From: Blepharisma japonicum
Lineage: Eukaryota > Ciliophora > Heterotrichea > Heterotrichida > Blepharismidae
Direction: 5' to 3'
NCBI GenBank assembly: GCA_949751835.1
Contig: CATKHK010000046.1
Coordinates: 124,001 to 188,000 of the forward strand
Length of the DNA stretch: 64,000 bases
Below the pieces are notes generated by a model, which was given only the letters and a program-made list of their open reading frames with translations, was not told where the DNA came from and made no database searches. The position numbers and the translations under genes are program-made. This document shows, piece after piece, positions 7,863-26,513 of this stretch; positions within the stretch are counted from its first letter, which is position 1, and each line of letters opens with the position of its first letter.

Positions 7863-9779
7863 TTAAAATTTATTTTTATAGAAAAGCATGTAAACATATC
7901 TAAAATCAGGCTGCTCCACAAATGCTACCTTTGAGCAACTATACTCAACTCATGAACTTTGAGACTCGCAATAAGTAAAAGCAGAATAGCACCCAGAAGC
8001 ATTATAACAGATGACTCCATAAAGAACATAATTGTTATTTTCAATGTATATGTGCCCGCTTGGAATAAAAGCCACTGCTGGAAATAAATAAAAAGCTAAA
8101 TTAGCAGAGGTCTCAATACGTTTCGTTTCAACTATTATATCTCTCAAACATCCACATCTATCACAGTAAAGTGCATTTGCCCCTTTAAAGCTTTCAGGAC
8201 TCTTTAATCCATCTATATAGCTCTGTATATTTCTTATCTTGCTGGTATCCACCATAAAAATCGACCTATTTTCATTGATTGTTATCGCTTCATGTCTTCT
8301 GCATACTAAACTTTTTTCTATTCTGATTAAAAATAAGTTAAATGCAGGTTTTTGTTCAGATAATTTTGAGATGATAATTTGGAAAAGATTTTTAGGGTCA
8401 TTTTGGTTTCATCCTTGGAACTAAATAAAAGTTACCATTGAAAATTCTGAGCCTAATGTGTTTTTGAATTGGGATATAGCAGAAGATAAATTATGTTCTG
8501 ATTTGTTTTTCATAAGTTGCAAAATACTAGACAGACTGGAGAAAATAGGAAGTTTAATTGAGGAAATGATACCATAAAAGCCTTCGGTGTTTGCAAGTAT
8601 TTGTAGTACAGAATTCATATAGCAAGCATTACCAATACAAGGTAAACCAATATTGCAATTTGCATAAGATCTAGATTCTGGGATGGGCATAATTCTACCT
8701 GAATTAGGATCATCTAATCTTTTGCAGTTGTTAGCTGCATTATAAGCTTGAGCTAATTTCTTATCATTTTTTTCCTCTTCAGCACTAATAATTTGGTATC
8801 TTTCAACTGAATTCTTAATTAATTCGTTTTTTTTGTTACTGGGAAATGCACTATTTATTAATTTATCTTGTATTTCATAGCTCTCAGAGGCCTTGTCTTG
8901 TTTTTTGAGATCTGATTTCTCTGCTGAAATATTTTTATATATCTGCTTCTTACTAGAGTTTACAATGGAGCTTAAATTTGCCTGAGATAAATAATCTATC
9001 ATATTAATATCATTTACTGGTAAAATATTGTTATTCTGATTATGGCCTGATTCAAAATCCTGCTTTTGAGATTGATATTCAATTTTGTCAGGATACTTAT
9101 TGAAGTAATTATATTTTCTTTCTTTAAGCTTATATCCGCTTGGCTTTTTGGAAATTTTCTCTTTATTATCATTTTTTGGGGATATTATATTGCTTAAATT
9201 AGATACCTGCACTGCGCTTGCTGGATTTTGATTATTTCTTAGTTGGTCTTCTTTAAAGGGTTTATCGCTATTTATCTTGAGATTTGGTTTTGGACTCTTA
9301 GAATATTCTGCGCGATCAGCTTTGGTATCTTTATTTAGTCAACAAGAAGAGACATGTTTTTGCCTCTTAACCTGATCTTGAGGTTTATTAGAAAATTCAA
9401 GATTTTTTTGATTATTTTCTCTATCTGCATAAAAGCTATTAAAACAATTTCAAGTGGAACTGAAAACTTCTTCCATCCTATTCGAGTTTTTCTGCGAAAG
9501 TTGAGGATTCTTTAAAACTGGATCAATATTCGTTGGTAGTCTCAATCCTGCTCGATTATTTTCTTTTCTGATATTTTTATCTTGACTTTGTGGTCGAACT
9601 GATTTATCAGTGTGTGAATTTTGAGAGTTCATTGAGGAAGGTGATTTAATGTAATTTTGAGTATTTTTACTGTCATTTTTGACAATTACTCTGTCTTTTT
9701 GACTGCCGTTTCTTCTTATCATTTTATCTGAATCATGACCTTTAGATTTATTATCAACTTGAGTAAGTTTTCTGTTCAT
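7863..9779 (-). CDS. USP-like deubiquitinase paralogue 1 (probable pseudo-enzyme)
   Basis: After removal of one 15-nt intron (8421-8435) and with TGA as Trp, this is a 633-residue protein. The first 370 residues are Lys/Asn/Ser/Gln-rich and probably disordered. A USP/UCH (C19) domain follows: Cys box 'IGNACYMNSVLQILA' with the catalytic-type Cys at 386, then a CX2C zinc-ribbon half ('LYCDRCGC'), then the C-terminal core. The His box is degraded: paralogues read GGHYTAF or GHYTSM, this one reads 'GCYSAFTY', so the general-base His is replaced. It may bind ubiquitin or a ubiquitin-like protein without cutting it; that is inference. It belongs to a local family with the genes at 16560, 19969 and 24562. 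The start is the first ATG of the long frame. Confidence 0.82.
8421..8435 (-). other. 15-nt spliceosomal intron in USP paralogue 1
   Basis: On the minus strand it reads GTAACTTTTATTTAG. It carries an in-frame TAG, and its removal joins two USP halves in frame at the same place as in two paralogues. GT...AG and 15 nt fit the typical heterotrich intron. Confidence 0.9.
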
Positions 9780-9869
9780 TCTATAATTTTAATATCTTAG
9801 TAAATATTTATAAGGATTTTTATAGCACATCGAGAGAAGTGTAAAAGTTATTTATGAATAAAATTTTAG

Positions 9870-10139
9870 CTAGGAATTGAGCTCTTTAAATCTTTTAGTT
9901 ATTTCATCTATTACCTTATCTGGAAGCTGTTTAGCTCTTTCATTCCTCTTTTTGAGAAAACAATAGAGAACTTCTTTGTTCTAGGCATGATTAATAGTAA
10001 ATAGCTTCTGGTTGATGAACTTTTTGAGCTTTAGGTTCGAGATGCTCGATTAAATGGAACTAACATAACTAATTCCAATTTCTGAGCATGCACAAAAAAA
10101 GCCAGACTCGTTAGGGCATTCCAATTTTCAGCACTTCAT
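9870..10139 (-). pseudogene. Relic of a small Cys-rich protein, stop-punctuated
   Basis: A 90-codon frame begins at ATG ('MKCWKLECPNESGFFCACSE') and ends at TAG. It is interrupted by one TAA and one TAG but no frameshift. The Cys pattern CX4CX7CXC resembles the start of the small zinc-finger modules common in ciliates, but the later Cys/His ligands are missing. The last third ('ERAKQLPDKVIDEITKRF') looks like genuine protein. I read it as a decayed gene; the UAR codons may alternatively mark Gln positions. Confidence 0.4.
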
Positions 10140-10422
10140 GATAAATTTATATCTATTAAAAATTCTATAAATTTATCAGCATTTCTATGATTAAATGATT
10201 TATGGGAAATATACCAAAATAAAATTGTAAGCAAATTTTACAGCTTAATTTTTTTAAAATATTATATTTTCTTAGCTAGAGTCTTTTAAAAAATTATCAT
10301 TTACTAGGGCAGCACGTTGATAATTATATTTATAAATTATGAAAATTCACATTAGGCAGAAAGTTTAACAGCCTCACAAGCAAAAATCATTTATTTTTAA
10401 ATATTGAATAAATCTATTGTCA

Positions 10423-11193
10423 TTAAGCTATTTTATTTGTCTTTGGAGGTTTATCTAAAGAAAGATCAACTCTCTTAGGCTCTGGCCAAAACTTTTTAAT
10501 AATCTCTTTGGGCTCGCAAATATTATCTTTATTCGCATCTTTTCCTATTTTTTCTATCATTTCTTGTTGCTCTCTTCAAAATTTATTTGCTAAATTAGCA
10601 GCCGCTTGAGTCACCTCAGAAATTATTTTTTGAAGCTCAACAAAAACCTTACTCGCTTGTGCTAGTTTAGATGTATTTGCTCTGCAGCATTTTATTCCTC
10701 TACCTCTGTTGACATAATTTACCCCTTTTAATGCCTTATCAGCTTGAAATTGGAATTGTAAGATATTATTCCAGAAATCCCTTAATTGTCCAAAAAGCTC
10801 AGGCACTTTTATTATAGACTCTTCTAATACTTCCAGCATATGATCCCAGGCATCTGCAACATAGAAATGTTCAGGCCTAAGACACTCCTTGTTTATTTTA
10901 ACATATGGCTTTTCTGTTGTAATTTGAAGATTGATTTTACTCAAGTCACCATCTGTTGAGGCAGAGAAGCAATAGATCATTGCTTCCATTGCATCTTTGA
11001 ATGTGGCGTCTTTTAAGATATGGCAGCCTGTTGCTTTTTTAAACTTTTTAATGTGCTTTTTAAGCTTATGGCTGGTTTTATCGAGAGCTTTCATAGGCTC
11101 TGATGCTGCAATAAACATGCTATCGACTTCTTCAACGCCGCAGGTTTCTATCTCGAGGTCTATTTTATTTTTTGTGCTTCCACCACAACCCAT
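10423..11193 (-). CDS. Predicted N-myristoylated protein of unknown function
   Basis: A 256-residue protein beginning MGCGGSTKNK. Gly2 with Ser6 fits the N-myristoylation consensus, and Cys3 could be palmitoylated, so a membrane-anchored location is inferred. The body is mostly helical and basic (two 'KKHIKKFKK'-like patches near residue 48), with no domain I recognise. The frame passes one TGA as Trp ('NKFWREQQE') and continues about 50 residues to TAA. I chose the ATG at 11193 because it creates the lipidation motif and no in-frame ATG lies before it. Similar MGCGGS proteins occur widely in ciliates, but I cannot name a function. Confidence 0.75.
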
Positions 11194-12094
11194 GGATATT
11201 AATTATTGATTGATGAATAAGGAAAATCCACATTTTTAAGTAATGAGCATGAGCATATATAGTATTGCTTTTAATTTGTTTTCAATATTCTTAATGAAGA
11301 AAAATTATTTTAATTTTTTTAAGGTGAAGTATATTTTTACAAAAAATTCATAATTAATTATAAAAAGTTAAAATAAGTGATTTTACATTTTGAATACTCA
11401 TTTTATGCTTAAAAAAATTTGATTTTTTACAGATTTTATAAGTTTATGCATTGATATTTTTATTATGAGATTTTATTTCTCTTTTAAGAAAACTCAATTG
11501 CTATTTTATAAGGTAAATATCGCTGAAAGAATATATTTTCGTTGTAAGATAAAAATATCACTGCGCTAATAAGGCATTTTTTTTAAAAATTGATCTATTT
11601 GTTTGAAATTCATTCTAATTCATAATTTATTGCTGCTTATACTTTTATATCAACTTGATATAAGGTCTGAATAATTTATCTCTTCGATAATCAGACTGCA
11701 GCGTAATGAGATGAAATGGATTTCAATAATAGCCTTTTTGAGGGTCAAACTTCGGCTGGCATTTCTATAGATAATGAAACCACTACCTTTCTATATAAAC
11801 AAATAATTCATCACAAATTAGCAATTTATCAGCCCTAGCTCGCATTTCACTTTTTAGTGCAGATTCAATTGGGGCTTATAATCTGAAAAAACTTTTGTTT
11901 GATCCTTACCATATACATATGATACTTATGATATTAAAATTAAATAAAATATGTTGAATCTATAAATTTAAAAGATGAAAAACTTTATCAATATTTAAAT
12001 CCTAAGCTTAATTATGATTTGCTTTCCTTCACTATCAGTAAAAAACGATATGAAAACCATTTAATCTTAAGCATCACGCAGAAATTATGTTACT
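11194..12094. other. Intergenic with possible relic coding
   Basis: Mostly very AT-rich. From an ATG at 11716 on the plus strand a frame runs 40 codons ('MDFNNSLFEGQTSAG') to a TAG at 11836, then stays protein-like in places with further stops. It could be a degraded gene fragment. The evidence is too weak for a gene call. Confidence 0.3.
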
Positions 12095-12382
12095 TTAAAC
12101 CAGATAAATATTTGAGCTTTTATTTTTGCCTCCTAGCTGTCGATGCATAACTTTTATAACTGATAAATTTACTATTCCCAAATCCCTTAAAGTTAGATTG
12201 CTATGCTGATCATATCTCAACACTCTTTTTTGGAAAACAATAGACTGCTGGTCATTCGTTACCCCATAAATATCAGCTATTTTCTTCGCCAGAGCTGAAA
12301 ATTTTCAGCCTGTTCAGACTTCTTGAGTATTGGTAATACCATTGATGTCTTCTAGTCTTATTGTTATTTTTTCGTTTGCCAT
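12095..12382 (-). CDS. Small ubiquitin-like protein, Gly-Gly plus tail
   Basis: A 95-residue protein visible only if two TGA codons are Trp ('EVWTGWKFSALAKKI'). It follows the ubiquitin/SUMO fold order: beta strand 'ITIRLED', helix 'SALAKKIADIYGV', strand 'SIVFQKRVL', 'LTLRDLGIVNLSVIKVM' matching the TL-x-x-LGI-x-x-x-x-I-x-V end of SUMO-like folds, then 'QLGGKNKSS'. The Gly-Gly followed by a 10-residue tail is the arrangement of a precursor cleaved by a Ubl protease, so conjugation is possible but unproven. It has a paralogue 0.6 kb away and lies among USP-like genes. A plain Ubl-fold adaptor that is never processed is the alternative. TATAGAATG surrounds the start. Confidence 0.72.
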
Positions 12383-12966
12383 TCTATAAAATATTAATAA
12401 CTTTAGGATTATGGGCATTTGTGCTTTAAAAGGATAATAAAAATTAGTAATTTTATGAAGAAATAACTTTTTAATTGACCTTGCAATGAAAAGAAATCTA
12501 ATTTCACTAAAAACAGTAGAAATAATAAGGAAATTATTTAGCTGTGCAAATTCTTGCTGTAGGATAGGAAATTAATTATCCTTAAATAGAACATTCTGCT
12601 GAATAGCTTTAGAAGAATCTTAGCTCAAAGTCAGAGAAGATAATAGCAGCTCAACCTTCTGCGAATGCCACGAAGATAGGGATAAAATATAGGCTGAGGT
12701 TAATTATATTTCTCTTGCATGTTAATGAGGATCAAAACGCTTAATAAAGCTATGTTTTCATTTCGTGTAAAATTAGAATATTAAGAAAGAAACTTGAAAG
12801 ACATATGGATCCAAGGCCACTTATCTTAGAAATAAATTCATTTAATTTATTTATAGCTCTTAATCTTCTTTATCTTATAGTTTTCTTAACAAGTGACCTG
12901 TATACAAATAAATATCCTACTTCTCAAATTTTTAACTATGGTTTCTACAATTTTATTAAAATAATT
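12383..12966. other. Intergenic between the two Ubl genes
   Basis: AT-rich, no supported gene. A short plus-strand open frame at 12805-13050 is the antisense shadow of the second Ubl gene's 3' part. The right half is the 3' flank of the 12967-13242 gene. Confidence 0.4.
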
Positions 12967-13242
12967 TTAAACCTCGAAGCTTCAATAACCTCCTCGGGAA
13001 CGGGTCATGACATATATTTTAGAACTGTTTTTTATTCCCAAATCTCCTAAAGTTTTGTCTTTATCTTCGTCAAATATAAGCAATTTTCTCTCGAAAATAA
13101 CTGATAGAGTATTTATAGTTTTTCCATAAAGAGTTTCAATAATTAAGGCTAACCTTGAGTACTTTCATTGCGCATATGCTTCTTTTGTTATGTGTGCACC
13201 ATTTGAATCTTCAAAAATTATACCTAACTTTGTAGGTTCCAT
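12967..13242 (-). CDS. Small ubiquitin-like protein 2, Gly-Gly plus tail
   Basis: A 91-residue paralogue of the gene at 12095. Shared landmarks are 'IIFEDSNG' (against IRLEDING), 'QWKYSRLALIIETLYG', 'SVIFERKLLIF', 'KTLGDLGIKNSSKIYVM' and a C-terminal 'SRGGYWSFEV'. Two TGA codons are Trp, one of them in the tail after Gly-Gly. The RGG-like end followed by seven residues resembles immature ubiquitin or SUMO. Divergence from its neighbour is high, so the duplication is old or evolution is fast. It is likely a modifier or Ubl adaptor; substrate and enzyme are unknown, though the flanking USP family is an obvious candidate. Start is the only nearby ATG. Confidence 0.7.
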
Positions 13243-13706
13243 TATTAAAATTCAATTTTATACAGAAATTTATAACTAGTCCTCTTCTAAAGTTAAGTAT
13301 CTATTTATATTAATTATTCCTAAAATTTATTGGCACACAGGTGGGCTTATGAGCATTTTTGTATATAATAAGCTTGCTTGACATTCATATTTAAGAAGGA
13401 CTAATCACAACTGATAATATGATATTAACATCAAATTCAAAATTTCAATCGAGTATTGAAACCTATTTTTTCAGTTTTATTTATCAGGCTATATTTTGCA
13501 TGCTTTTGTTCGTCCTTAAACTCTTATCCCAATTCAATAATTATCTTATCAGGATTGAAGTATCTTTGCTGTGATTTTTTTGATAATTGCTTTATAATAA
13601 ACAATTTTGGCATTTCTTTATTAGTTTTCCTGTTCTTATTATTTTTGCTTTCTTTTCATATCTCCTTTTATATTCTTATATATTAAATTTGTAGAATTCA
13701 ATAAAT
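13243..13706. other. Intergenic with minus-strand relic
   Basis: A minus-strand frame across roughly 13430-13690 reads protein-like ('KKSQQRYFNPDKIIIELG', then TAA, then 'EFKDEQKHAKYSLINK') but has no start and carries a stop. A hydrophobic plus-strand frame at 13456 is probably its antisense shadow. I call no gene. Confidence 0.3.
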
Positions 13707-15502
13707 ATGAGCACTTCTAATTAAGAACTGTTTGCTATATAATTGCTTCAATCAGCAACAATATTATTCACAATAATCTCAAGTTTCAAATCTATGATAA
13801 TGAATTAAATGAAGCTATAGCAAGCATTTTTAGACTTCAAAAATCCAGATATCACTCTTAAAAAATTTTACAACTTAGTAGGTAGGAGCCTTTCAGAGAC
13901 ATTGATACAATTTTTAAAAGAAACCCAACTTCAAGCAGATATATAGAAAAGACAATAGAAGCTTCGAGTTTACCAAGAGAACCAATTAATCTAAAAGATG
14001 TACTTTTTGTTTCCAAAAAAATGTCTTATATAAAATCATATATTTATGAAAACTAATATAAACTAATTTCCAGTTTTAGTGAAAGGAAAGTCTTTTGCTT
14101 ATTTGATGAGAGCTGGTATGATTGCAGCAGCAGTAGAGAATTACTGATTAAAAAATCCCTGATTTCACTTTTCTAACAACATTGGTTTATTTGAGAGCTA
14201 AAAAACCCTTTGATAGCTAACAACATTGAAATAGCATCTGAACAAAGCCGAAAAATGCAAAAATTTGCCAGTGATATTAAATCAAATGGAATTGTTAGAA
14301 GAAATGTTTCAGCAGAGACTATAACTTCTACTCCCAAGAATCTTTCTAATTCTCCTAAATCATCATTGCAGGAAGAAAATCATAAAAACTTGAATATCAT
14401 TCCAGAATTATCAGAAAAAGCAAGATATAACAAAGAAGACCAAACAGAAATATAGCGGATTAAGATATTTTGAGACATAAATTCAAATGCAGTTTTTCAC
14501 CCGATATTTATAAAATTTTACAGACTTGGAATAGTAATGATATATTATGACAAGGTACGTTCCCAAATTTTCTTATTTAGTATACCACGTCACAATAAAT
14601 TCAGAGACAGAGTTATTTATGGCAAGATTGTTGATTCCGACGCTAAAACAATTTATCCGAATATAAAAATATTAAATGAAAGATGCTTAGCTGATCTTGA
14701 GATAAGATTAATAAAACGTTTTGAAGAGAAGTTTCAGAAAAACCTAGAAATATACAAGAACGAAGAATCTTTAAAATATCAACAAGTCAATAAAGCCAAA
14801 GAAGATCTATTTAATTCTATGGTTAAATTTACTGAACTGCAACAGGCATTATAATCTTTAGATGAGAAATTCAAAGAATTTAATCTTAAATTAAAGAAAT
14901 TTGATGCTATATATGCACACGGCTAAAGTTCATGCAAATTGTTTCTCCATTAATAGCCTCATTTACTCAAATTAATTTTTGTGAATAAACCCTTCAATTT
15001 AAAATGTGAATAGCGATAGATTGCAAGTCTAAAGAATTGGCTTGCAAATTTGGTTTGGTAAATTAAATCTTCTAGTGGATAGGAAATTTCGTTCTAGGTG
15101 AGAGCTGAAATCATAAAGAGGCTATCCATAATTATTTAAAATCGATCCATAATATATCAGGAAATAAAATCAATCAAAAACTCGAAAATTTCAAGCTCAT
15201 CAATTGACTTAGAAATATTAAAAGAGATTAATAAAACTACTAAAACTAAATTTACTGAGCTAGAAAATCATATCAGTAAAGAAGTTGGCGATTTAAATGA
15301 AAAATATAATATTTTAGAGAGCAAAGTTAGCAATAAGGATTCTTCTATCGAAAATATCAAATACGAATTGAAAGATATTGGCCGAAAAATTCAAAGTCTT
15401 TCAAACAAGCGAGAAGTCAATAGCCTTAAAGATAAAATTAACAGTTGGAATGATGAAAGAGAAACATTAACTATTCATTGTAAGCAAGTATATATCAATT
15501 AA
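13707..15502 (+). pseudogene. Decayed, truncated paralogue of USP gene at 16560
   Basis: This aligns with the N-terminal and coiled-coil parts of the gene at 16560 and lacks the USP domain. Matches include 'IIASISNNIIHNN' with 'MIATISANIVANI', 'NELNEAIASIFR' with 'PELHEVIANAFR', 'YKLISSFSERKVFCLFDESWYDC' with the 'YKLIFSIENN...EIWYEC' segment, and 'QEIKSIKNSKIS' with 'LEIKSTKESKIS'. The likely ancestral ATG (13707) and the upstream TTTGTAGAAT are conserved. After a one-base shift near the start, one frame runs to about 14926 with six in-frame UAA/UAG codons (13859, 13883, 14054, 14174, 14453, 14852); a second open stretch covers about 15150-15502. TGA codons read well as Trp. At 14054 the TAA sits where the paralogue has Gln. 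Confidence 0.65.
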
Positions 15503-16140
15503 TTAATTTGATAACTTTAATAATGTATTGATTAATTTTTATCAATAATTATAAATTTTTTGAAGAATTAAGAAAATTTCTTTGATTACTCTTTATTAAT
15601 CTCTGTAATTTGGATTCCAAACAATCATAAATTTCGAGCATTAAACTTTGGAGATAAAATGGAGTAGATTATGATAGGCATTATATCATTTTATCTAACT
15701 TTTTAGAGATATGTGGTCCAAAAAAGTACCTAAAATCTGTTTTTTAATTATCCCTTGTCTTTCTCTTACCTCATTTATTGGTTTGCGTGAGGTGCATTGA
15801 TGTAATATATGGCACTTTTGAGCATTATCATACTTTCACTAATTTCTATTTCTCTCCCTTCCTTATAGAAATTTCTTGTTAATAGTTATATCTTATATTT
15901 CTTATTATCAAGACTATATAATTTGCCATTTACGAGGAAGGCATGGGTTTCATGCTTGAGTTTCTAGCTTTTTCCCAATCATCAATAAAGTCTCCATCAA
16001 TTAAGAGGAACCACTATCCTCCGCTGCCCTCGCTTGATAAATAAATCTCGTGATTTTTTTCTAACGATATTAGCAATATATAATTGATAGTGGATTTAAT
16101 AAATTAATCTAATGGAAATATCATCGTGCATCTTTGGATA
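15503..16140. other. AT-rich intergenic
   Basis: No frame, RNA or repeat could be supported in this gap between two plus-strand relic or gene regions. Confidence 0.4.
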
Positions 16141-16152
16141 GATTTTTGGTTT

Positions 16153-16393
16153 CTTTTTGTTACAAATTATTAGAGCCTATTTTATCAGCCAACCTATATA
16201 TTTATGGGATTTTAGCTTATTTGGAGTTGATAAGGACACTAAAATCCCTTTTCCTGCTGAAATTAAAATGATACTTAAAATCATAAATATCTTTCAAAAC
16301 TAATTGGCATTTTATAAATATGTTTGTGATAGAATTAGAATTTTGGCAAATTATGCTTTTTCTTGCAATCAGATGGGATAATCTAAATTAAAA
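16153..16393 (+). pseudogene. Short stop-punctuated coding relic
   Basis: One frame reads 'RAYFISQPIYLWDFSLFG', then 'VDKDTKIPFPAEIKMILKII', then 'LAFYKYVCDRIRILANYAFS', broken by TAA at 16301 and about 16378. The style (PFPAEI followed by a hydrophobic helix) is protein-like, but I recognise no family. No start codon is visible. It contains a 10-bp inverted repeat (GGGATTTTAG at 16206 and CTAAAATCCC at 16239). Confidence 0.25.
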
Positions 16394-17816
16394 TAAATTT
16401 ATCTTTTGTGGTTTGGCTAGGTTTAAATAAAGTATTTATACGAAAGACTTATTTATAGCATTTTATATAGGTTTGTTTGACTAAGGATATTCATATTTGC
16501 TAATTTGTTTTGTAGAATACATAAAAATTAGTACTTCATCTTTGAAAAAGGCATGCTGGATGATAGCAACAATTAGTGCTAACATAGTTGCTAATATAAA
16601 TAAAACCTTTGAAATACTTGATCCTGAGCTGCATGAGGTAATAGCAAATGCATTCAGAAAGGGTATTACTGATCAAAAATTAAAACAATATAATGGCTTG
16701 ATGAGTTGTGATAACACTATCGAAGCATTTAAGACTATTTGCGATAGAAATGAAAATTTGAAGGAAATTTGTGATATAATCGAAATTAATAACGTTAAAA
16801 ATTACTCAGAAGGGGATTTAAAAAATGTACTTGTTATTTACAATAAAACGCAGCAAAAGCAAAGTCTTAAGAATTTAGATAGTCAATATAAATTAATTTT
16901 TAGTATTGAGAATAATCAAGTCAGATCTCTCTTAAAAGAAATTTGGTATGAGTGCAATGATAAAGCAACTAAATTGAAAGGATCAAAATATGAATCTGGA
17001 TCGATTTTAGTTTATCTTAAAAAACACTCAAAACCTTTGAAAGATGATCAAGTGCATGTTTCATCAAATAACAATAAATTTCGTCCTGAAAGGGGAAGAG
17101 ATATTTCTAACAAAATAGCCATTCCTAGAGCTCTTTCAATTCCTGCTCCACAAGTGCAAAAAAGACAGCGTTTAGACAATAGTCCTCAAATAGTAGAAAT
17201 CAAATACCATGATATCGATCTTAGAGAAAAAAGCTATGAGCTTAATCAAAACTCTTCAATAAAAATAAATGAACAAAATAAAAATAATTACTCTGAAAAT
17301 GAATTAAGTACGGCAAATATAAAAGCTCTTGAAACATACACTTCTGAAATAGTAGAGAAATTAACTGAAAAGATAGATCGTTTAGCTAATGATCAAGAAA
17401 GATTAGTTAAAAATTATGAAAAATTTGAATCTTCACAGATGGAATTTAATGAAAATTTTACTAAAATCTTGGATGGATTTTCAAACAAATTGAAAGAATC
17501 AGATCAGTTAACTAGAATAAATAAATTGAAGCAACAAAGAAGCCCAAATAGCAATTTCAATTTGGAAGAGATAGCTGAAAAAGTGAGGGTCAAAATAAAT
17601 GATAGATTAGAATCAGCAATATTAGCAAGTAGCACAGAAATTATTTGTACAATGGATAAATTGGAACGGAAAATAAATTCAATTGAATTATCTAAAAGAA
17701 CATATGATAATCTAGAATCAATTATAGATCAAAATTATCAAAAATTATATAATTTGTATCTTGAAATAAAATCAACAAAAGAATCAAAAATTTCAAATTC
17801 AGATATTACTGAAATT

Positions 17817-18109
17817 TTAAAAGTCGAGATTTGATACTTTGTATTATAAATTCTCATCTAAGGCGATCTATGTGACTTCCGCTAATTGGAAAACTTCACG
17901 CGATTATCGATATCTATTACAATAAATCTCCTTTACCTTCAGCCTGAGTCTTTATGCTAACTTCAGACATTGGAATATGCTGCCTAGGGACTTCAGAGCT
18001 GCTGCTTAGAGAATAGAGTCTCAGCTTAGGATAAATTTCTTACCTCACCAACCATATATTCAAGTATTAAGAAGTATTGGTAGTTGCTATAGTTAATTAA
18101 ATCTAAGTT
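17817..18109. mobile_element. 293-bp insertion, candidate unexcised IES or small element
   Basis: Reading 'ILKVEI' ends at 17831 and resumes as 'LKVDIDNLKDD' from 18110. TTTTAAAAGT occurs at 17815 and again at 18108. Deleting 293 bp between these repeats restores one frame through the coiled coil and matches the uninterrupted relic ('EILKEIN'). The interior has many stops and no gene. The ends are weakly inverted (TAAAAGTCGAGATTT against TAAAACTTAGATTT). TA-flanked excised segments are known from Blepharisma germline DNA; retention here is inference. Confidence 0.5.
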
Positions 18110-19012
18110 TTAAAAGTTGATATAGACAACCTAAAAGATGACTTAATTAAACTCAGAACTAATGAATATGCAAAACGAACTAATCTTACTGAAATTGAAA
18201 ACAGCTTAAAAGAATATACCGTTAAAGAGATCAAGAGTATTAAAAATGAATTAAATGAATTAAAATCTAATTTTCATTTAATGTCTAGCTCTGACAAAAA
18301 GGAGCTTGATACGAAAAAATTGGAGCTCAATAGTTCTATTGAAGAAATAGGGAATCAGATTAATGCTATTGATAAGTTATCCAAGACTAATAAATCTGAT
18401 ATCGAAAAGCTTTGCATTCAAAGTGCTGATTTAAATACAATATTTTGGAATTGAGAAAGGCGAGTTAATGATTGCATTGAAAATATATCAAATAATAGCA
18501 ATATTAACAAAAAGGAAATAGCTGAACTAGCGAGAAGTCAGGAATTATCTATTACAAAGTTAAAAACAATCGAGGAAGAAATAGAAAAATATAAGTCTGA
18601 AATTTTCAGACAATCTTTTATTAGTTCAAATGAACCTCAAGCAGTACTTCGGATAGATGCATCATTAGCTTCTCAAGCAGTGACTCTGCCACCAAGACAT
18701 AATATAGATCCTCATAATTATCAGCAAATTAAAAGCCCGCTTAGAAGCACTCAAATTAAATCTTTGCCAGTGAGATCTCAAGTTTATAGCAAATCTGGCT
18801 TAAAAAATATAGGAAATACCTGCTATATGAATTCTGTTATTCAAATATTAGCAAGTATTTCTGAATTTACAAAATATATAGGCAGCATTGACGATCGATT
18901 ATTACAGAGTCTACATTCAGTTATAGCATTAATGAATAGCAACGCTACAGAGAGTGCAATAATACCACATATCAATAAATTTAAAGATATAATTTCAGAA
19001 GAATATCCAATA

Positions 19013-19027
19013 GTAATATTTATTTAG
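19013..19027 (+). other. 15-nt intron in USP paralogue 2
   Basis: GTAATATTTATTTAG ends in the in-frame TAG that would otherwise stop the USP domain. It splits the domain at the same point as the introns at 8421 and 21658. Confidence 0.88.
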
Positions 19028-19567
19028 TATGAAGGAAGAGCTCCAAATGATTCAAAAGAGCTGTTTGCCATCATTTCAGATAAAGCTAAAGATGCAAATC
19101 TTTTTACTCTAATAAAAAGACAAACGCTTACATGCACTCTCAACCATAGATCATTAACCAATGAGCTTTCAAATTTTATAACTATTCCAGAAAAATGTTA
19201 AAACAATATCAGAGAATTTTTAAACAAGATAGTCAGAGAAAAAAACTATTTTTATGAGACAAATAAATTAATTTGCGATGTATGTGGAGAATTGAGAGAA
19301 ATGACACTGGAAACTGAAAGTGTTGATTGACCAAATATTTTAGCAATTTATATGCCAAATTGCCAGCATGATAATGAACTTATAGACGAGTTGAAGATTG
19401 GAAAAGAAACTTACCAAATTTTCGGAGTAATATGTGATTATGGGTTTCATTTCATATCATTCACTAAGAATAGTGAAAACGAATGGGAGAAATATGATGA
19501 TTCAAGAGTCAGCAAAAATGAGCCTGATTGGAATAGGCTTTATCTTGCATTCTATAAGAAATATTAG

Positions 19568-19968
19568 TAAATCTTAAAAGGCTGTTTATACAGTAATTGT
19601 AGTCAATTTAAATTATACTTAAATTATTAGAAATAAAGCAAGAGATAAGAAGAAAGTTATCAAATCCAAAATGGTCCCCAGATATAATAATACTTGCCTT
19701 ATCATTTATAACTATGATACATATAATTGCATGATATGCATTAATTGCTATTAAAATTGAGAAAATATTCTATCATAGTATAACTCTAACTTACTTGAGT
19801 CAAGATATTGGAATAGGATTTGAACTTTTGAATATAAAGGAGACCACTGTCCAAATCTTAGAGAATATTTATAAAATTTTGTATAAAAAAATTAAATCAG
19901 CATATAAGTTGGCCTAATCACTTTATAATAACTAAAATTAAAGAAAGTAAAAATTTATAGAATTTAAA
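19568..19968. other. Intergenic before USP paralogue 3
   Basis: No convincing gene. Short fragments ('CLIIYNYDTYNCMICINC' around 19700) read protein-like but have no start and no continuity. It presumably holds the promoter of the next gene. Confidence 0.35.
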
Positions 19969-22245
19969 ATGGAGTCTTCAGTCATCCCTTTTTGTCAGAA
20001 CTGGCCAATAGTTTCAGCAGTTTATATTTTTCAAGCAATTAATCAAAATCAGCCCCTCAATCCAAATACAACTACAGGATACAACTTAAAAGAATGACTT
20101 GAAGAAGCAGCACAATACCACTTACCTTCTATCGATTTAAGCAAATTTGATGATCCAGATTCCCAAAGCAGCCTGCAAGCACGGCTAAATGAACTTTATC
20201 TACTACTTAAAAATAATGAAATTCCTTTTCAACAAAATTCTATAAAATATTTATCAATATCAAATAAAAAAATCATCGATGAAAGACAAATTAACAAAAA
20301 AACTATAGCTTTTTTTGCCAAATTAGAGGGTTCTGGAAATATTCAAACAAATCTTACTATAAAAAATACTAACTGAAGACTTTCAGCAGTGTTTTCAGGG
20401 AAAGCAAATCTTTGCTTTTGTTTTATTCAGAATCGATGGAGGAATTTAAGCTGCAGGTGCAATAATAAAAATTGAAATTGATCTGATGCTATTCTTTGTT
20501 ATGCAAAAGGTAATAAGTTTAATTCCCAAAGCATTAATTTCAATGAACTGCAAAATATAGATTGCTTATTTTGCAATAGAAAAAACAGTGAAGTAAATAT
20601 TGAAAATAAAAATGCAGGCAAAAATATAAAAAATAATGATACAGCAATTAATAAAAATCAACCTGACAAAAAGAATAAAAAGGAAATCTCTCCAGCTAAA
20701 AAATTAAAAAACTCTAGTATAGAGGAGCAAAAGAAGGAAGATAGCGCTATTAATAACCAAATTTTGATAGTAAATACTTCAATGATTCTAAATCATAATA
20801 AGCCTATTACTAGTGTCGAATTGGTATCTAAAACTAATGAATCAAATAAGAAATTATCAGCTAAAGAAGGACCTATATTTCAAGATTTCTCCTGCCAATA
20901 TCCCCTAGAAGATTTGTGCCCTAGCAAAAAAGAAAATGATTTTGGCATAAAAGTTGAGCATCAAACTCAAATTGACAATTTAAAAAACATAATCAAACAA
21001 CGAGAGCAGAAAATCGAGGATTTAGAGTTAACTTCCAAAGATCAAGCCAGAAAAGTAGAGAAATGCAAAAACGAAATTCAGCGTTTGCAAGATATAATTA
21101 AAGAAAAGGATCAAATAATTAAAAAATCAGAGCATGGGAAAAAAGAAATTAACAGTAAGCCAAAATTAAATGATAAAAGGATTGAAGAAACAAAAATTGA
21201 TTCAAGTGAAAGCTATAGTTCTTCACAAAATACTCAATATTTTATGAAAGAATTAAAAAGAAATTTTTTAATAGTTGAAAATTTAAAGGAAAGTATCATG
21301 ATAGCTCCAATCATTATAAATCCTACTGAAAATATTGATCAAATTAAAAATAAAAATCCTGCTATTGAAGAAGTTAAAACTCCTAAAGAAAGCTTAAGCA
21401 AAAATTCATCACCAATTTTTCAGTTTAGAAAGCAAGGATTGCCTAATATAGGGAACTGCTGCTATATGAATTCTTTATTACAAATTTTAGCCAGCACCAA
21501 CTGCTTTGTAGAAACAATTCAAAATGCTCCGAATTTCTCTATGCTTGAAAAGCTCTCGAACTTATCAGAAAAAGTTAGAAATAAATCAACTAAACAACAA
21601 GTTTTAGCATCTTCTCTAAAAAAATTTATATTCGAAATAGGTAAAGAGTTCCCGCATGTAATTCCCACATAGATAAGCTCATTTTCACAGCAGGATTCCA
21701 AAGAAATTTTCCAAATAATTGCTTCTTCTCTAGACGAGGCTATCCCAAATAATAATATTTTTTCCATATTTATCAAGCAAAATCAATATTGTTATTCCTG
21801 CAAAGTAGAGACTCATTTGCTTGACGAATATCAGAGCTTTTTAATAATCCCAACAAATGCTCAAGGAGATTTGGAAACTATAGTTAAAGAAAGGGTCACA
21901 CAGGAAAAAATTTATTCGAAGAAAAATGAATTAATTTGTGGAAAATGCAAGAAAAAAAGAACAATCAAGATTAAAATGGTAGAGCATAAATGGCCTGAAG
22001 TCCTTGTTTTATACTTTCCTGATGAAGGCAAAAAGGTAAAATTAGAAGAAAGTATGGTCATTGAGGAATATAGATTTTCACTATATGGGGTAGTTAAATA
22101 TTTTGGCTCAGGCATGTTTGGGCATTATACATCCATGACTAAAGATGGAAATGTTTGAAATATGTATAATGATAGGGAGGTAAATCAATGCAATTTTTCA
22201 GGCGAGAATAAATATTTAGCGTTTTTTAAGAGAATAGATAAATAA
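19969..22245 (+). CDS. USP-like deubiquitinase paralogue 3
   Basis: A 753-residue protein after removing the intron at 21658-21672 and reading several TGA codons as Trp. The N-terminal 220 residues begin 'MESSVIPFCQNWPIVSAVY' and are Cys/Trp-rich ('CFCFIQNRWRNLSCRC'); I recognise no domain, though the layout hints at a degenerate second protease-like fold. A coiled coil follows around residues 330-400, then a USP domain: 'IGNCCYMNSLLQILA' with Cys498 in the catalytic position, 'QQDSKEIFQII', a zinc ribbon (YCYSC and LICGKC), 'FGHYTSMTK' with the catalytic His, and 'WNMYND' with the third catalytic residue. It should cleave ubiquitin or a ubiquitin-like chain; the local Ubl proteins are possible substrates. 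ATG at 19969 is the first in frame. Confidence 0.82.
21658..21672 (+). other. 15-nt intron in USP paralogue 3
   Basis: GTAATTCCCACATAG. Its removal joins 'EFPH' to 'ISSFSQQDSKE' and eliminates an in-frame TAG. Position matches paralogues 1 and 2. Confidence 0.92.
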
Positions 22246-22681
22246 GTCCTTTTAATTAGTAATCAATGCCAAGGGTAGCCCATTCTTTTATTATTTTAAT
22301 GGAGTATTTTCTCAAATTTATCTTGTATTATATAGCATTACTTAAGATTTAGAATGCCAAAATTTCCATCAATCACTCTATAGATAAAAGAATTTTATTG
22401 CTGTTCAGAATTTGTAGGTGAAATCTTATTTTTATCTTCTTGTAACTGAAATAAGACTAAAATTTAAGCTGCTATTAAAAATATATCCCTCCCTCGAAAT
22501 ACATAAATATTAATTTTCTACTCAAAATAAGTCTTTTTGTTTAATAGAATTCAAATTATTTTGATGAATATTTAGCATTCAAGATTATGATTAATATTAT
22601 ATAGCATATTTGTAAAAAGATGCATTTAGACTCATAAAATGGTATGAATATTATTCGATTAATTTTATATTAAATGATAAG
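22246..22681. other. Convergent intergenic
   Basis: The 3' flanks of two converging USP genes. No hidden frame or RNA seen. Confidence 0.45.
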
Positions 22682-24562
22682 TTAGGAAAATATTGAATAA
22701 AAAACTAAATAAGCTGAGTTTTGATCAAAAGCTTTATTTTCCACAATACTATCATTATATTCTATCCACTGGTCTTTATGTCTTGTAAAAGCTGTATAAT
22801 GTCCTCCATTTCCCATCTCATAATGGCATATAACTCCATACAGATAGTAAATTTGCCCATTTAGCTCTAAAATATCTTCTAAAGGTTTGAAAGATATTTG
22901 AATCCCCCTTTCAGGCTTAGGTAAGTATAATATGATATATGGCGGATACTGAATTTCAATTATCTTTGTTTGAGTAATTGAATTTTCACTGCAAAAATCG
23001 CACTTCAAACCCCCTTCAATATTTTTTGGTCTTTTTATTTTTTCAAAAAATGATCCTATATTAATTTCCGAGCTCGGAATGACCAACAAGCTTTCATATC
23101 TTGGCATAATTGATTGTTTTCCACATCTACAAGGAAATTCCTCAATAAAACTAAAAGAAAAAAATGATTTTGTGGCTTCATCCAGAGTGAAGCCTAATAG
23201 GGCCACCAATAGCTCTTTGGCATCTTGCTGATCTCAATGTAAAAATTCAGGAAATGCTGCGTCAATTTCAGATTTTAATGATCTCAATTGTGGCGATAGT
23301 GACTCATTAGTTCCCTTTCTAATCAATGAAAGGACTTTTGATAAGGTAATCGACAATTTATCTGCTTTTTTACTAATAATTTCATAAAGTTTGTTGGTAC
23401 TCGCGAAAATTTGTAAAACGGAATTTAAGTAGCAAGTGTTTCCTATGTTGGGAATTCCTAATTTTTTATTAGGGAAAATAGAGTCTTCTGAATCTTTTTG
23501 ATAAAAATTATAAACTATTGAGGGATCGTACTGTTGGTGGTTTTGAATTGATAAATAATCATTTGCCACTTTACTATATTCATCACAGGTTTGTCTTATG
23601 GTAAAATTGAATTTTGCATAATTGGATAATAAATTATTGTAATTCTCCTTTAGTTTTTCATTGCTAAATAAAAGAAGCTCGTACTTTTTCTTTTCATTTT
23701 TGAGCTCCTCTTTTAATTCTTTATTAGCTACTTGATATATTTCAGATTCTTCTTTGTTAATTCTCAACTGTTCTTGCATCTCAATTTCAGCACATTTTTT
23801 CTCCAAAGCTTCATTAAGAGCTTTATTATCTATTGTCAATTTTTCTATAATTTTTGCTTGATTCACAATTTTTTGATTTTGGCTATTTTTGATTTCTTGC
23901 ATTAAAAAGTTTGAAAAATTTTCAACATATTCAATAATTTCTTCTCCGTAATAATTTTTATTGTCCAAAATTCTTAAATGTTTAGCATAATTAATCTTTT
24001 TTATTTTACTATCTCCAATTTTTATGTATAATAAATACATACCTGTAGTAAAAGTAACCATTTTTTCATTTTTATTCCCCAACACAAACCATGAATTTTT
24101 TTTAAAGTAATACATGATTTTTTGAGAATCAGAAAAAACTGAGACAAGCAAAAATTTTTCATAATCTTTTTCTATCAAAATTTCTGGCTTGTCTATATCT
24201 TCAATCTCAACTAAAAAAAATGGCTTATTTTCATGATGCTCAGATATCATTGATGAATAAGAAATTAAGGAAAAATATCAGGATTCTTTTTCTCTATAAA
24301 AAATAAAAGAGTGGAGCTTACAATGATATAAAAAATTATAAAGGTATCCTCAGAGTTCTAATTCGCCAATTTGAAAGCTATTTAATAACTTTATTATAGA
24401 ATCTTCTTTCAAGTCAAACTTTCTTGCATCATTCAAGGCTTCCTGAATTTGTGCTAATTCACTTATTATTTCTTCATTAGCAGCTAAATAATCTGTTATA
24501 GTACTAATTAAACAGATAGAAGCGCATACATTTCAATATTTTTGGTCTTCTGGAATTTTCAT
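22682..24562 (-). CDS. USP-like deubiquitinase paralogue 4
   Basis: A 626-residue protein, continuous from the ATG at 24562 to TAA when TGA is Trp. A standard-code reading would start at 24250 and lose 104 residues ('MKIPEDQKYWNVCASICL'). The N-terminal 230 residues are hydrophobic-patterned with a CASIC motif and 'WYFSLISYSS'; like paralogue 3 this could be a degenerate second protease-like domain. A coiled coil lies near residues 230-340. The USP domain has all catalytic features: 'IGNTCYLNSVLQIF' (Cys377), 'HWDQQDAKELL', the zinc ribbon (CRCGK, LKCDFC), 'GGHYTAFTR' (His588) and 'WIEYND'. It is the best-preserved enzyme of the cluster. It has no intron at the place where its three paralogues carry one; the junction is clean, so intron loss is likely. 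Confidence 0.85.
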
Positions 24563-25160: not shown

Positions 25161-26513
25161 TTAAAGGCCAATAAGGTCTAGAATTCCATTATTTATCCTA
25201 TGTCTATGTTTTCTGTCTAAGTAAGCCAGAATATAAAGGAACACTATAACAATGTCTATATATAAAAGTAATGCCGCAACAGTGTAATCATCATACGTTA
25301 ATTCACGATGTCTTCCTCCTGCTATTAATTGCGTATCAAACACTATGAAATACCCAAACAACAATACAACTACGAAGCAGTATATCGTATACAAAAAATT
25401 ACTATGAAGCCAAACCATTGTAAGCCCAAATATGCAGAATAGCACAAGAGTGACAATTAATGCACCTCTACCTTGAGTGAAATCTCGCTTTGTTTTTCAC
25501 GCATAAATTGTTAAAGCAAATACTATCACAAGTGTACATACAGCAGCACAAATTATTATAATTGGATCATAAAAAGTGCAAATAAAAGCAACTATATAAG
25601 TTTCAAATAAAGTATATAGAAATAAAGCAATATGATTGTATGGATAATGTGTAACGAATTTTTTGAAGTAAAAAATTGCAATCATTATTATGCAAGTCAT
25701 ACCACAACATATGGCAGCAATCAACCAAAACTTTTTAATTTCTTCTCGCAAATCTTTAATTCCACAGACAATACTAACAAAAATAGCTGTAATCATTAAT
25801 TGGAATAAAAGTAGCGCATATACTTTTATAATGAAAGATCTCCTATCGTTGTTTACTGTTATCATACTTGAATTGTCTAAGAAACCTCTCAATCTTGACT
25901 CTTGTTGATTTTGATAATTAATCCTAGTGACCGGAGGATTTGCAGGAGGATTATTTAAATAGCTGGGAAAGACCGGAGGATCGGGCATAACTTGGCTGAC
26001 TTTATTGGTTGAGCTTCAATGATTTTTATCTGGATATTGTGGCAATTCTTCAAGGTACTGCTCATTATGGGAAGAAATAATCGGCTGATTGAAATAACTG
26101 GCAATAGGTTCAGAATAGGTGATAGCTTGGTTTAATTTATTGGCTGAGCATTCAGGGTTTTCATTTTGATATGTAGCACTTTCTTCAAAGTGCTGCTCAG
26201 TATTGGCAGAAATAATTGGATAGGATATAGCAGGCAGATGGATACGTTGGATAGCATTAAAAGGTAAATTCTCCTCGCTTAGTTCATCAAATGGAGGATT
26301 TAGAGAAGATGGGTTTACTTCTTCAGGATTAAAAATTGTCTGGTTCTTCTCAGAATCGTTTGGAATATTAACACTTTCTGAATTTTTTGGGCTGCAGATG
26401 ATATAATTTTTTTGATTGCTGGATATAATTGGATCGAGGTGTTCATTTAATGCTGATCCAGGTCTATATTCAGGCTGCTTCTGCTGCTGAGATTGATTAA
26501 TATAGGTCGTCAT
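25161..26513 (-). CDS. TMBIM / Bax-inhibitor-1 (lifeguard) family membrane protein
   Basis: A 450-residue protein, open throughout with TGA as Trp at two junctions ('KNHWSS', 'IYAWKTK'). Roughly 210 N-terminal residues are Pro/Asn/Gln/Ser-rich and probably cytosolic and disordered. Seven hydrophobic segments follow, ending with the family signature 'VFDTQLIAGGRHRELTYDDY' and 'ALLLYIDIVIVFLYIL'. The family forms pH- and Ca2+-sensitive leak pathways in ER or Golgi membranes and modulates stress responses. The Asp pair of the TM7 sensor region is within the visible tail. The N-terminus is longer than in most family members. No intron seen. Confidence 0.9.

What the first reader, a model, noticed from the sequence alone, without database searches (positions are those of the whole stretch)
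7863..24562. USP-like protease and ubiquitin-like gene island
Within 17 kb lie four USP-domain genes or gene remains, one truncated paralogue, and two Gly-Gly-ending ubiquitin-like genes. All share the UGA-rich, intron-poor style, and several are hidden by standard-code prediction. Co-location of Ubl precursors with proteases able to process them suggests a lineage-specific modifier system, or a fast birth-and-death family linked to self/non-self or conflict functions.
Basis: partly seen in the sequence, partly recalled or inferred. Interest (0 to 1): 0.75.

Follow-up and report, generated by a model that had tools for sequence, protein, structure and literature searches.

The report
Clustered private ubiquitin-like modifier pathway
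A freshwater ciliate appears to keep the parts of a second, private ubiquitin-like protein-tagging pathway (tags, enzymes that attach them and enzymes that remove them) side by side in one fast-evolving gene array, which would make a little-studied kind of cell signalling directly testable.

Summary
The window is part of contig C46 of an unnamed 45.2-Mb genome, inferred to be a Blepharisma. It catches the right edge of an array (C46:1-150 kb, C107, C170; 0.71% of the genome) with 57 of 143 genomic USP-domain matches, 19 of 32 Ubl-family matches, 15 of 127 E2 matches and three full-length E1 genes. At C46:62.5-83.4 kb the typed genes run E2, E1, USP, Ubl, USP, E2, E1, USP, Ubl, E2. The TAG that splits USPs a and c ends a 15-nt intron. 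One window Ubl is a predicted beta-grasp. The array E1s and three B. stoltei E1s form a clade apart from the canonical E1. Five of these six have Gln where 115 of 118 other E1s have the Asp facing ubiquitin Arg72; 11 of 11 listed class-I Ubls lack Arg72, while both window Ubls keep it. I infer a genus-specific, ISG15-like private modifier pathway (0.7); its role is untested. In the window, USPs c and d have intact triads, a is catalytically dead, b is broken.

The parts
7863..9779 (-). USP gene a, 15-nt intron at 8421-8435; catalytic Cys kept, His and Asn lost (predicted pseudoenzyme)
12095..12382 (-). Ubl precursor, ends LGG + 10-residue tail (class II, Arg at ubiquitin position 72)
   Evidence: PF00240 3.7e-6; AF2 pLDDT 83, beta-grasp; Foldseek matches to ubiquitin and ISG15 chains
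12967..13242 (-). Ubl precursor, ends RGG + 6-residue tail (class II)
   Evidence: PF00240 0.0044, below cut-off; aligned with the other Ubls; not folded itself
14177..14854 (+). fragments of a USP-family middle region (truncated paralogue)
   Evidence: blastp to C46:67560-70340 residues 160-329
16485..19567 (+). USP gene b, broken: insert of about 270 bp near 17.83-18.10 kb and nonsense TAA at 19199; intron 19013-19027
19969..22245 (+). USP gene c, intact triad, 15-nt intron 21658-21672
22682..24562 (-). USP gene d, intronless, intact triad; B. stoltei relative P0125 47% over 99%

Best explanation
The island is the edge of a gene array that encodes a private ubiquitin-like conjugation pathway of Blepharisma. 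Proposed working: (1) USPs trim the short tails from Ubl precursors, or cut tandem Ubls, to expose Gly-Gly; (2) the array E1s adenylate these Ubls, with a crossover loop recoded away from ubiquitin Arg72; (3) the neighbouring array E2s receive the thioester and, with E3s not identified here, attach the Ubl to targets; (4) the many USPs remove it, specificity diversifying by duplication of USPs and Ubls around a slowly changing E1 core. Shown: gene content, domain make-up, catalytic residues, clustering, separate E1 clade, loss of the E1 acid and of Arg72 in class-I Ubls, a predicted beta-grasp for one window Ubl. Inferred: steps 1-4, the E1-Ubl pairing, any biological role.
For: Array content and enrichment. 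E1 at C46:63896: ThiF x2, SCCH, FCCH, 4HB, UFD; the other two array E1s by full-length reading and tree. E2 UQ_con 8.2e-40 and 4.1e-35 for the two scanned; HPN and a following Cys by eye in 6 of 6 array E2s read. In 3 of 3 cases an E2 is the E1's neighbour in my gene calls, two head-to-tail, one divergent. E1 tree of 25 rows: 3 array + 3 B. stoltei E1s one clade 100/100; canonical C9 E1 with Stentor 93/93; two subclades, each with array and B. stoltei members. E1 gate: position D623 is D in 115 of 118 other E1s, Q in 5 of 6 of the array clade (W in one); S621 is S in 114 of 118, I or T in 6 of 6. Residue 72 is a known E1 specificity filter (PMC12355090, passages); 11 of 11 listed class-I Ubls and 2 of 2 B. 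stoltei ones lack Arg72. Window-type Ubl 12095: 13 of 15 genomic matches are in the array. USP triad intact in 43 of 47 domains. MMETSP protein P0121 is letter for letter the Ubl at C107:28773-29024. B. stoltei E1 P0001 and USPs P0125, P0126 list one contig length, 1,026,051. E1 pair pS 0.427, pN 0.105.
Against: No biochemistry; no E1-Ubl pairing shown. Both window Ubls, and 3 of 4 class-II Ubls, keep Arg72, so canonical UBA1 may charge them. A third UBA1 contact, Q608, is unchanged in 6 of 6. The class-I Ubl scanned has no Pfam match at E 0.01, no class-I Ubl was folded as the query, and the genomic PF00240 search lists no Ubl of the array blocks (150 of 197 candidates scored). Relatives also lie outside the array: 86 of 143 UCH, 112 of 127 E2, 13 of 32 Ubl matches. 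Five listed Ubls end Gly-Cys. No E3 found. The two best B. stoltei Ubls (P0122, P0123) list other contig lengths than its E1s and USPs. B. stoltei E1 P0002 reads without the catalytic Cys.
Confidence: 0.7

Rival explanations
1. A hot spot of tandem duplication that swept up unrelated ubiquitin-system genes. The array E1s and E2s serve ordinary ubiquitin, and the Ubls and USPs have no shared pathway.
For: USPs and Ubls clearly duplicate locally. Runs of E2 matches (C21, C68, C79) and of ubiquitin matches (C66, C7, C12) lie elsewhere. Some array copies are broken. Q608 of the ubiquitin-reading loop is kept.
Against: Four pathway classes share 0.71% of the genome, and the E1s are a separate clade older than the split from B. 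stoltei, with a changed ubiquitin-reading pocket and low pN/pS.
Confidence: 0.2
2. A pathway that edits ubiquitin signalling: array Ubls act as decoys or chain cappers (some end Gly-Cys and may not conjugate normally), and the USPs act on ubiquitin conjugates.
For: Five listed Ubls, and further ubiquitin paralogues at C66, end in Cys where Gly76 should be. One such Ubl is fused to a kinase (C107:48685-49785; kinase by Pfam, Ubl part by eye).
Against: 12 of the 17 listed Ubl C-termini keep GG with a tail of 1-10 residues, and E1s with a changed gate exist.
Confidence: 0.1

Closest known systems
Vertebrate ISG15 pathway (ISG15, UBA7, UBE2L6, USP18)
   Same: A UBA1-type E1 paralogue, an E2, a tandem-Ubl modifier and a USP-type deconjugase (role of USP18 recalled). 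UBA7 is believed to come from a UBA1 duplication in vertebrates (PMC11354881, passages).
   Different: Genes clustered here; many Ubls and USPs. ISG15 shares LRLRGG with ubiquitin (PMC12355090, passages), while the listed class-I Ubls have lost Arg72. The array E1s group with B. stoltei E1s; no vertebrate E1 was in that tree.
Bacterial BilABCD operons
   Same: Ubl, E1, E2 and deconjugase genes together (PMC11354881, passages).
   Different: Bil uses a JAB/JAMM protease and bacterial E1 and E2; here a eukaryotic UBA1-type E1, UBC E2s and USPs, in intron-bearing nuclear genes.
UBA6 / FAT10
   Same: A UBA1-type second E1; Foldseek's top hit for the window Ubl is a chain of a UBA6 complex (7sol, chain identity not shown).
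   Different: UBA6 is titled bispecific for ubiquitin and FAT10; the E1 at C46:63896 scores higher against UBA1 (620 bits) than against UBA6 (571 bits).

Membership tests
UBA1-type ubiquitin E1 | Two ThiF domains, FCCH, 4HB, SCCH with catalytic Cys, UFD | tested here: met
   Pfam for C46:63896-66937; NCBIfam Ube1 over cut-off; catalytic Cys in 3 of 3 array E1s
UBA1-type ubiquitin E1 | Acidic crossover-loop pocket reading ubiquitin Arg72 (position D623; number recalled, letters agree with the alignment) | tested here: not met
   Q in 3 of 3 array E1s, D in 115 of 118 others; Q608 unchanged
E2 (UBC) | UBC fold, HPN motif, catalytic Cys | tested here: met
   Pfam on 2; HPN and Cys read by eye in 6 of 6 fetched
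Conjugatable Ubl | Beta-grasp fold | tested here: met
   Model of window Ubl 12095-12382, pLDDT 83; 12967-13242 and class I by alignment only
Conjugatable Ubl | C-terminal Gly-Gly | tested here: inconclusive
   GG in 12 of 17 listed C-termini (2 of them B. stoltei), GC in 5; ORFs with neither were not listed
USP protease | Cys, His and Asn/Asp triad | tested here: met
   43 of 47 domains of 245 aa or more; 7 shorter pieces set aside; one of the 43 carries a nonsense codon
ISG15 pathway | Orthology to ISG15, UBA7, USP18 | tested here: not met
   Array E1s group with B. stoltei; against PDB chains the E1 at C46:63896 scores UBA1 620, UBA6 571, UBA7 499 bits; ISG15 and USP18 orthology not tested by tree
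Bil operon | JAB deconjugase, bacterial E1 | tested here: not met
   Deconjugases are UCH/USP; the E1 matches PADLOC E1-E2 models only over parts of its length, best E 4e-14
Defence or self/non-self system | Induction by infection or control of mating or allorecognition | not testable with these tools
   No expression or phenotype data

The most novel reading that the evidence does not exclude
A single-celled eukaryote keeps a complete second ubiquitin-like pathway as one polymorphic gene array, with an E1 recoded at the Arg72 gate, USP and Ubl partners diversifying together, and Gly-Cys-ended modifiers of unknown chemistry. It would be a protist counterpart of ISG15 immunity or a self/non-self system.
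Probability: 0.2. Interest if true: 0.95.

Novelty: new variant of a known kind. Interest (0 to 1): 0.78.

Why it matters
Few cases are known in which a ubiquitin-like modifier gained its own E1, E2 and protease (SUMO, NEDD8, ISG15 and others). Here is a genus-level case with the genes side by side and a concrete, testable change at the residue pair that helps decide E1 specificity. If the Ubls and USPs diversify under conflict, it would open ubiquitin-like immunity or incompatibility to study in a protist. Gly-Cys-ended modifiers, if used, would be chemically odd.

Tried and rejected
Pseudogene reading of the in-frame TAGs: rejected for most copies, because a 15-nt GTA..TAG sits at one site. 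The script found it in 45 of 54 USP matches. Of the other 9: window gene a has it; C107:99213 has a 16-nt form; C107:23157 and 117122 show a readable in-frame five-codon stretch there, an intron only by inference; C46:81046 and 146697 lack it; 3 are fragments. The 54 rows stand for the 57 array matches: two pieces of one gene were merged and two matches at the end of C107 were not fetched.

Degenerate USP origin of the USP N-terminal regions: for five of six groups hhalign probability to the USP profile was 7.9 or less, not supported; for the group C107:31004 and 34674 it was 97.7. USP structure model: pLDDT 49, discarded. B-box-like heads seen by eye gave no B-box match among the Pfam rows shown, and the one at C107:40761-42389 no UCH match either.

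Comparison of array E2s with other genomic E2s, and a copy count of the insert of about 270 bp, did not complete, so not done. In the USP tree eight canonical rows were taken: two dropped out, one (canon_L004) was a mis-cut fragment that fell inside the array group.

Papers: searches listed no title or abstract start that describes this array (some listings were capped: 20 of 28, 8 of 80). 'Ubiquitin' occurs 0 times in the main text of the two Blepharisma genome papers. Supplements were not read. That some ciliates have polyubiquitin-like genes with autoprocessing domains is recalled; two searches listed no paper on it.
Full report
Setting. The window is C46:124001-188000 of a 45.2-Mb, 224-contig assembly without a name. 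UGA reads as Trp and introns are 15 nt, as published for Blepharisma stoltei (PMC9942806, passages). The E1 at C46:63896 is 75-85% identical to three B. stoltei E1s, and one Ubl is identical to an MMETSP protein whose species the tool does not show. I infer a Blepharisma other than B. stoltei.

Observation. The four USP genes or remains, the truncated paralogue and the two Ubls are present; details are in the observation check. The TAG that splits most array USP frames is the last codon of a 15-nt intron between the Cys box and the following Gln/Asp box: 45 of 54 matches by script, with the rest accounted for one by one. In the window, USP c and d are intact by triad, USP a has lost His and Asn, and USP b is broken by a nonsense codon and an insert.

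Extent. A six-frame Pfam search gives 143 UCH matches (145 of 151 candidates scored), 57 of them in C46:1-150000, C107 (133.9 kb) and C170 (34.9 kb), together 0.71% of the genome. These are matches, not genes: some genes give two. The first 64 bases of C46 and C107 are exact reverse complements, which suggests that the contigs join; similar sequence (95-97%) recurs inside both, so this is not proof, and C170's place is unknown. I had in hand C46:1-188000, C107:1-50000, C170:1-21600 and 21 short pieces of the rest of C107. Between the two C46 blocks (about 86-131 kb) lie mostly unrelated genes, though two there carry ubiquitin domains.

Other pathway parts. The array holds three full-length E1 genes (C46:63896-66937, C46:76628-79696, C170 from about 18.05 kb), 15 of 127 UQ_con matches, 19 of 32 matches to the Ubl at C107:28773-29024, and 13 of 15 matches to the window Ubl at 12095-12382. 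In C46:62575-83406 the typed genes run E2, E1, USP, Ubl, USP, E2, E1, USP, Ubl, E2; one untyped 91-aa ORF also lies there. Each E1 has an E2 as its neighbour (3 of 3). Tandem Ubls occur: di-Ubl at C107:24557 and 26522, and, outside the array, tri-Ubl at C4 and tetra-Ubl at C100. A kinase-Ubl ORF (kinase by Pfam, Ubl by eye) and a kinase-USP gene (Pkinase and UCH; its Cys and His are lost) occur. TPR genes and weak kelch matches are also present; no E3 was identified.

E1 specificity. In a tree of 25 E1s, the 3 array and 3 B. stoltei E1s form a clade (100/100), with a diverged E1 from C21 as its sister on a long branch; C9, the canonical E1, groups with Stentor (93/93). At the position of human UBA1 D623, 115 of 118 other E1s (those listed, best hits only, plus C9) have Asp, and the array clade has Gln in 5 of 6 (Trp in B. 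stoltei P0002, which also lacks the Cys). At S621 the clade has Ile or Thr in 6 of 6 against Ser in 114 of 118. Q608 is unchanged, 6 of 6. The residue numbers are recalled; the letters Q, S, D and C fit the human sequence. Arg72 of ubiquitin sits in a negative pocket of the UBA1 crossover loop, and residue 72 separates ubiquitin, NEDD8 and SUMO; [quoted passage not shown] Class-I Ubls (my label) have no Arg72 in 11 of 11 listed genomic C-termini, nor in 2 of 2 from B. stoltei; class II keeps it in 3 of 4. Left out of that list: ORFs without GG or GC (C107:21582, C46:53249, the C100 tetra-Ubl), internal domains, and Ubls not fetched. The pairing of a neutral E1 pocket with non-Arg Ubls is a prediction; the window's two Ubls are of the Arg72 class and fit it less well.

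Fold and catalysis. The model of window Ubl 12095-12382 has pLDDT 83 and matches ubiquitin, ISG15 and SUMO chains with Foldseek E near 1e-7. A profile of 11 Ubls of both classes finds ubiquitin in the PDB, 1e-33 for chains of repeats and 0.0014 for the best single domain. The one class-I Ubl scanned alone has no Pfam match at 0.01, and the PF00240 search lists none of the array blocks' Ubls; two B. stoltei relatives bear Ubl or SUMO-like names. The USP triad is intact in 43 of 47 domains of at least 245 aa.

Evolution. The array USPs, the C66 USP and both B. stoltei USPs separate from five canonical USPs (quick tree, one mis-cut canonical row inside). Pairwise pN/pS over 19 pairs (NG86 by script): E1 0.24-0.25 (2 pairs), E2 0.37-0.52 (4), USP 0.50-0.72 (8), Ubl 0.44-0.73 (4), and one GC-ended Ubl pair 1.4 on 82 codons, too short to call selection. 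This fits a constrained core with a faster periphery.

Conservation. P0001 (E1), P0125 and P0126 (USPs) share a listed longest-contig length of 1,026,051; P0002, P0003 (E1s) and P0124 (a Ubl relative) share 1,562,722; the two best Ubls P0122 and P0123 list 328,809 and 913,618. Equal lengths suggest the same contigs; order and distance were not seen, and the Ubl entries speak against full linkage there.

Conclusion. Private modifier pathway, confidence 0.7; its role is open. It works like ISG15 or Bil systems; membership in either is not met where tested.

Noticed in passing
window 17830-18105: Insert of about 270 bp between 19-nt direct repeats (84% alike) interrupts USP gene b; possibly a retained eliminated sequence (IES). 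The genome copy count did not complete.
   Followed up: partly
C66:150500-158500 (L053): One array-type USP with the 15-nt intron next to many ubiquitin paralogues, several ending RGC, KGC or LRC instead of RGG.
   Followed up: partly
C21:204500-207600 (L030): Diverged E1 without the catalytic Cys; the same contig carries a run of E2 matches at 79.7-92.0 kb.
   Followed up: partly
window 25161-26513 and C46:84561-85748: Two paralogous genes, the window one Bax-inhibitor-1 family by Pfam, lie just right of the two C46 array blocks, suggesting segmental duplication.
   Followed up: partly
C46:107819-112734: Two genes with two N-terminal ubiquitin domains and a DUF726 domain, between the two array blocks.
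   Followed up: no
C107:31004-37403: Two USPs whose N-terminal region holds an extra USP-like stretch upstream of the active domain (hhalign 97.7%).
   Followed up: no
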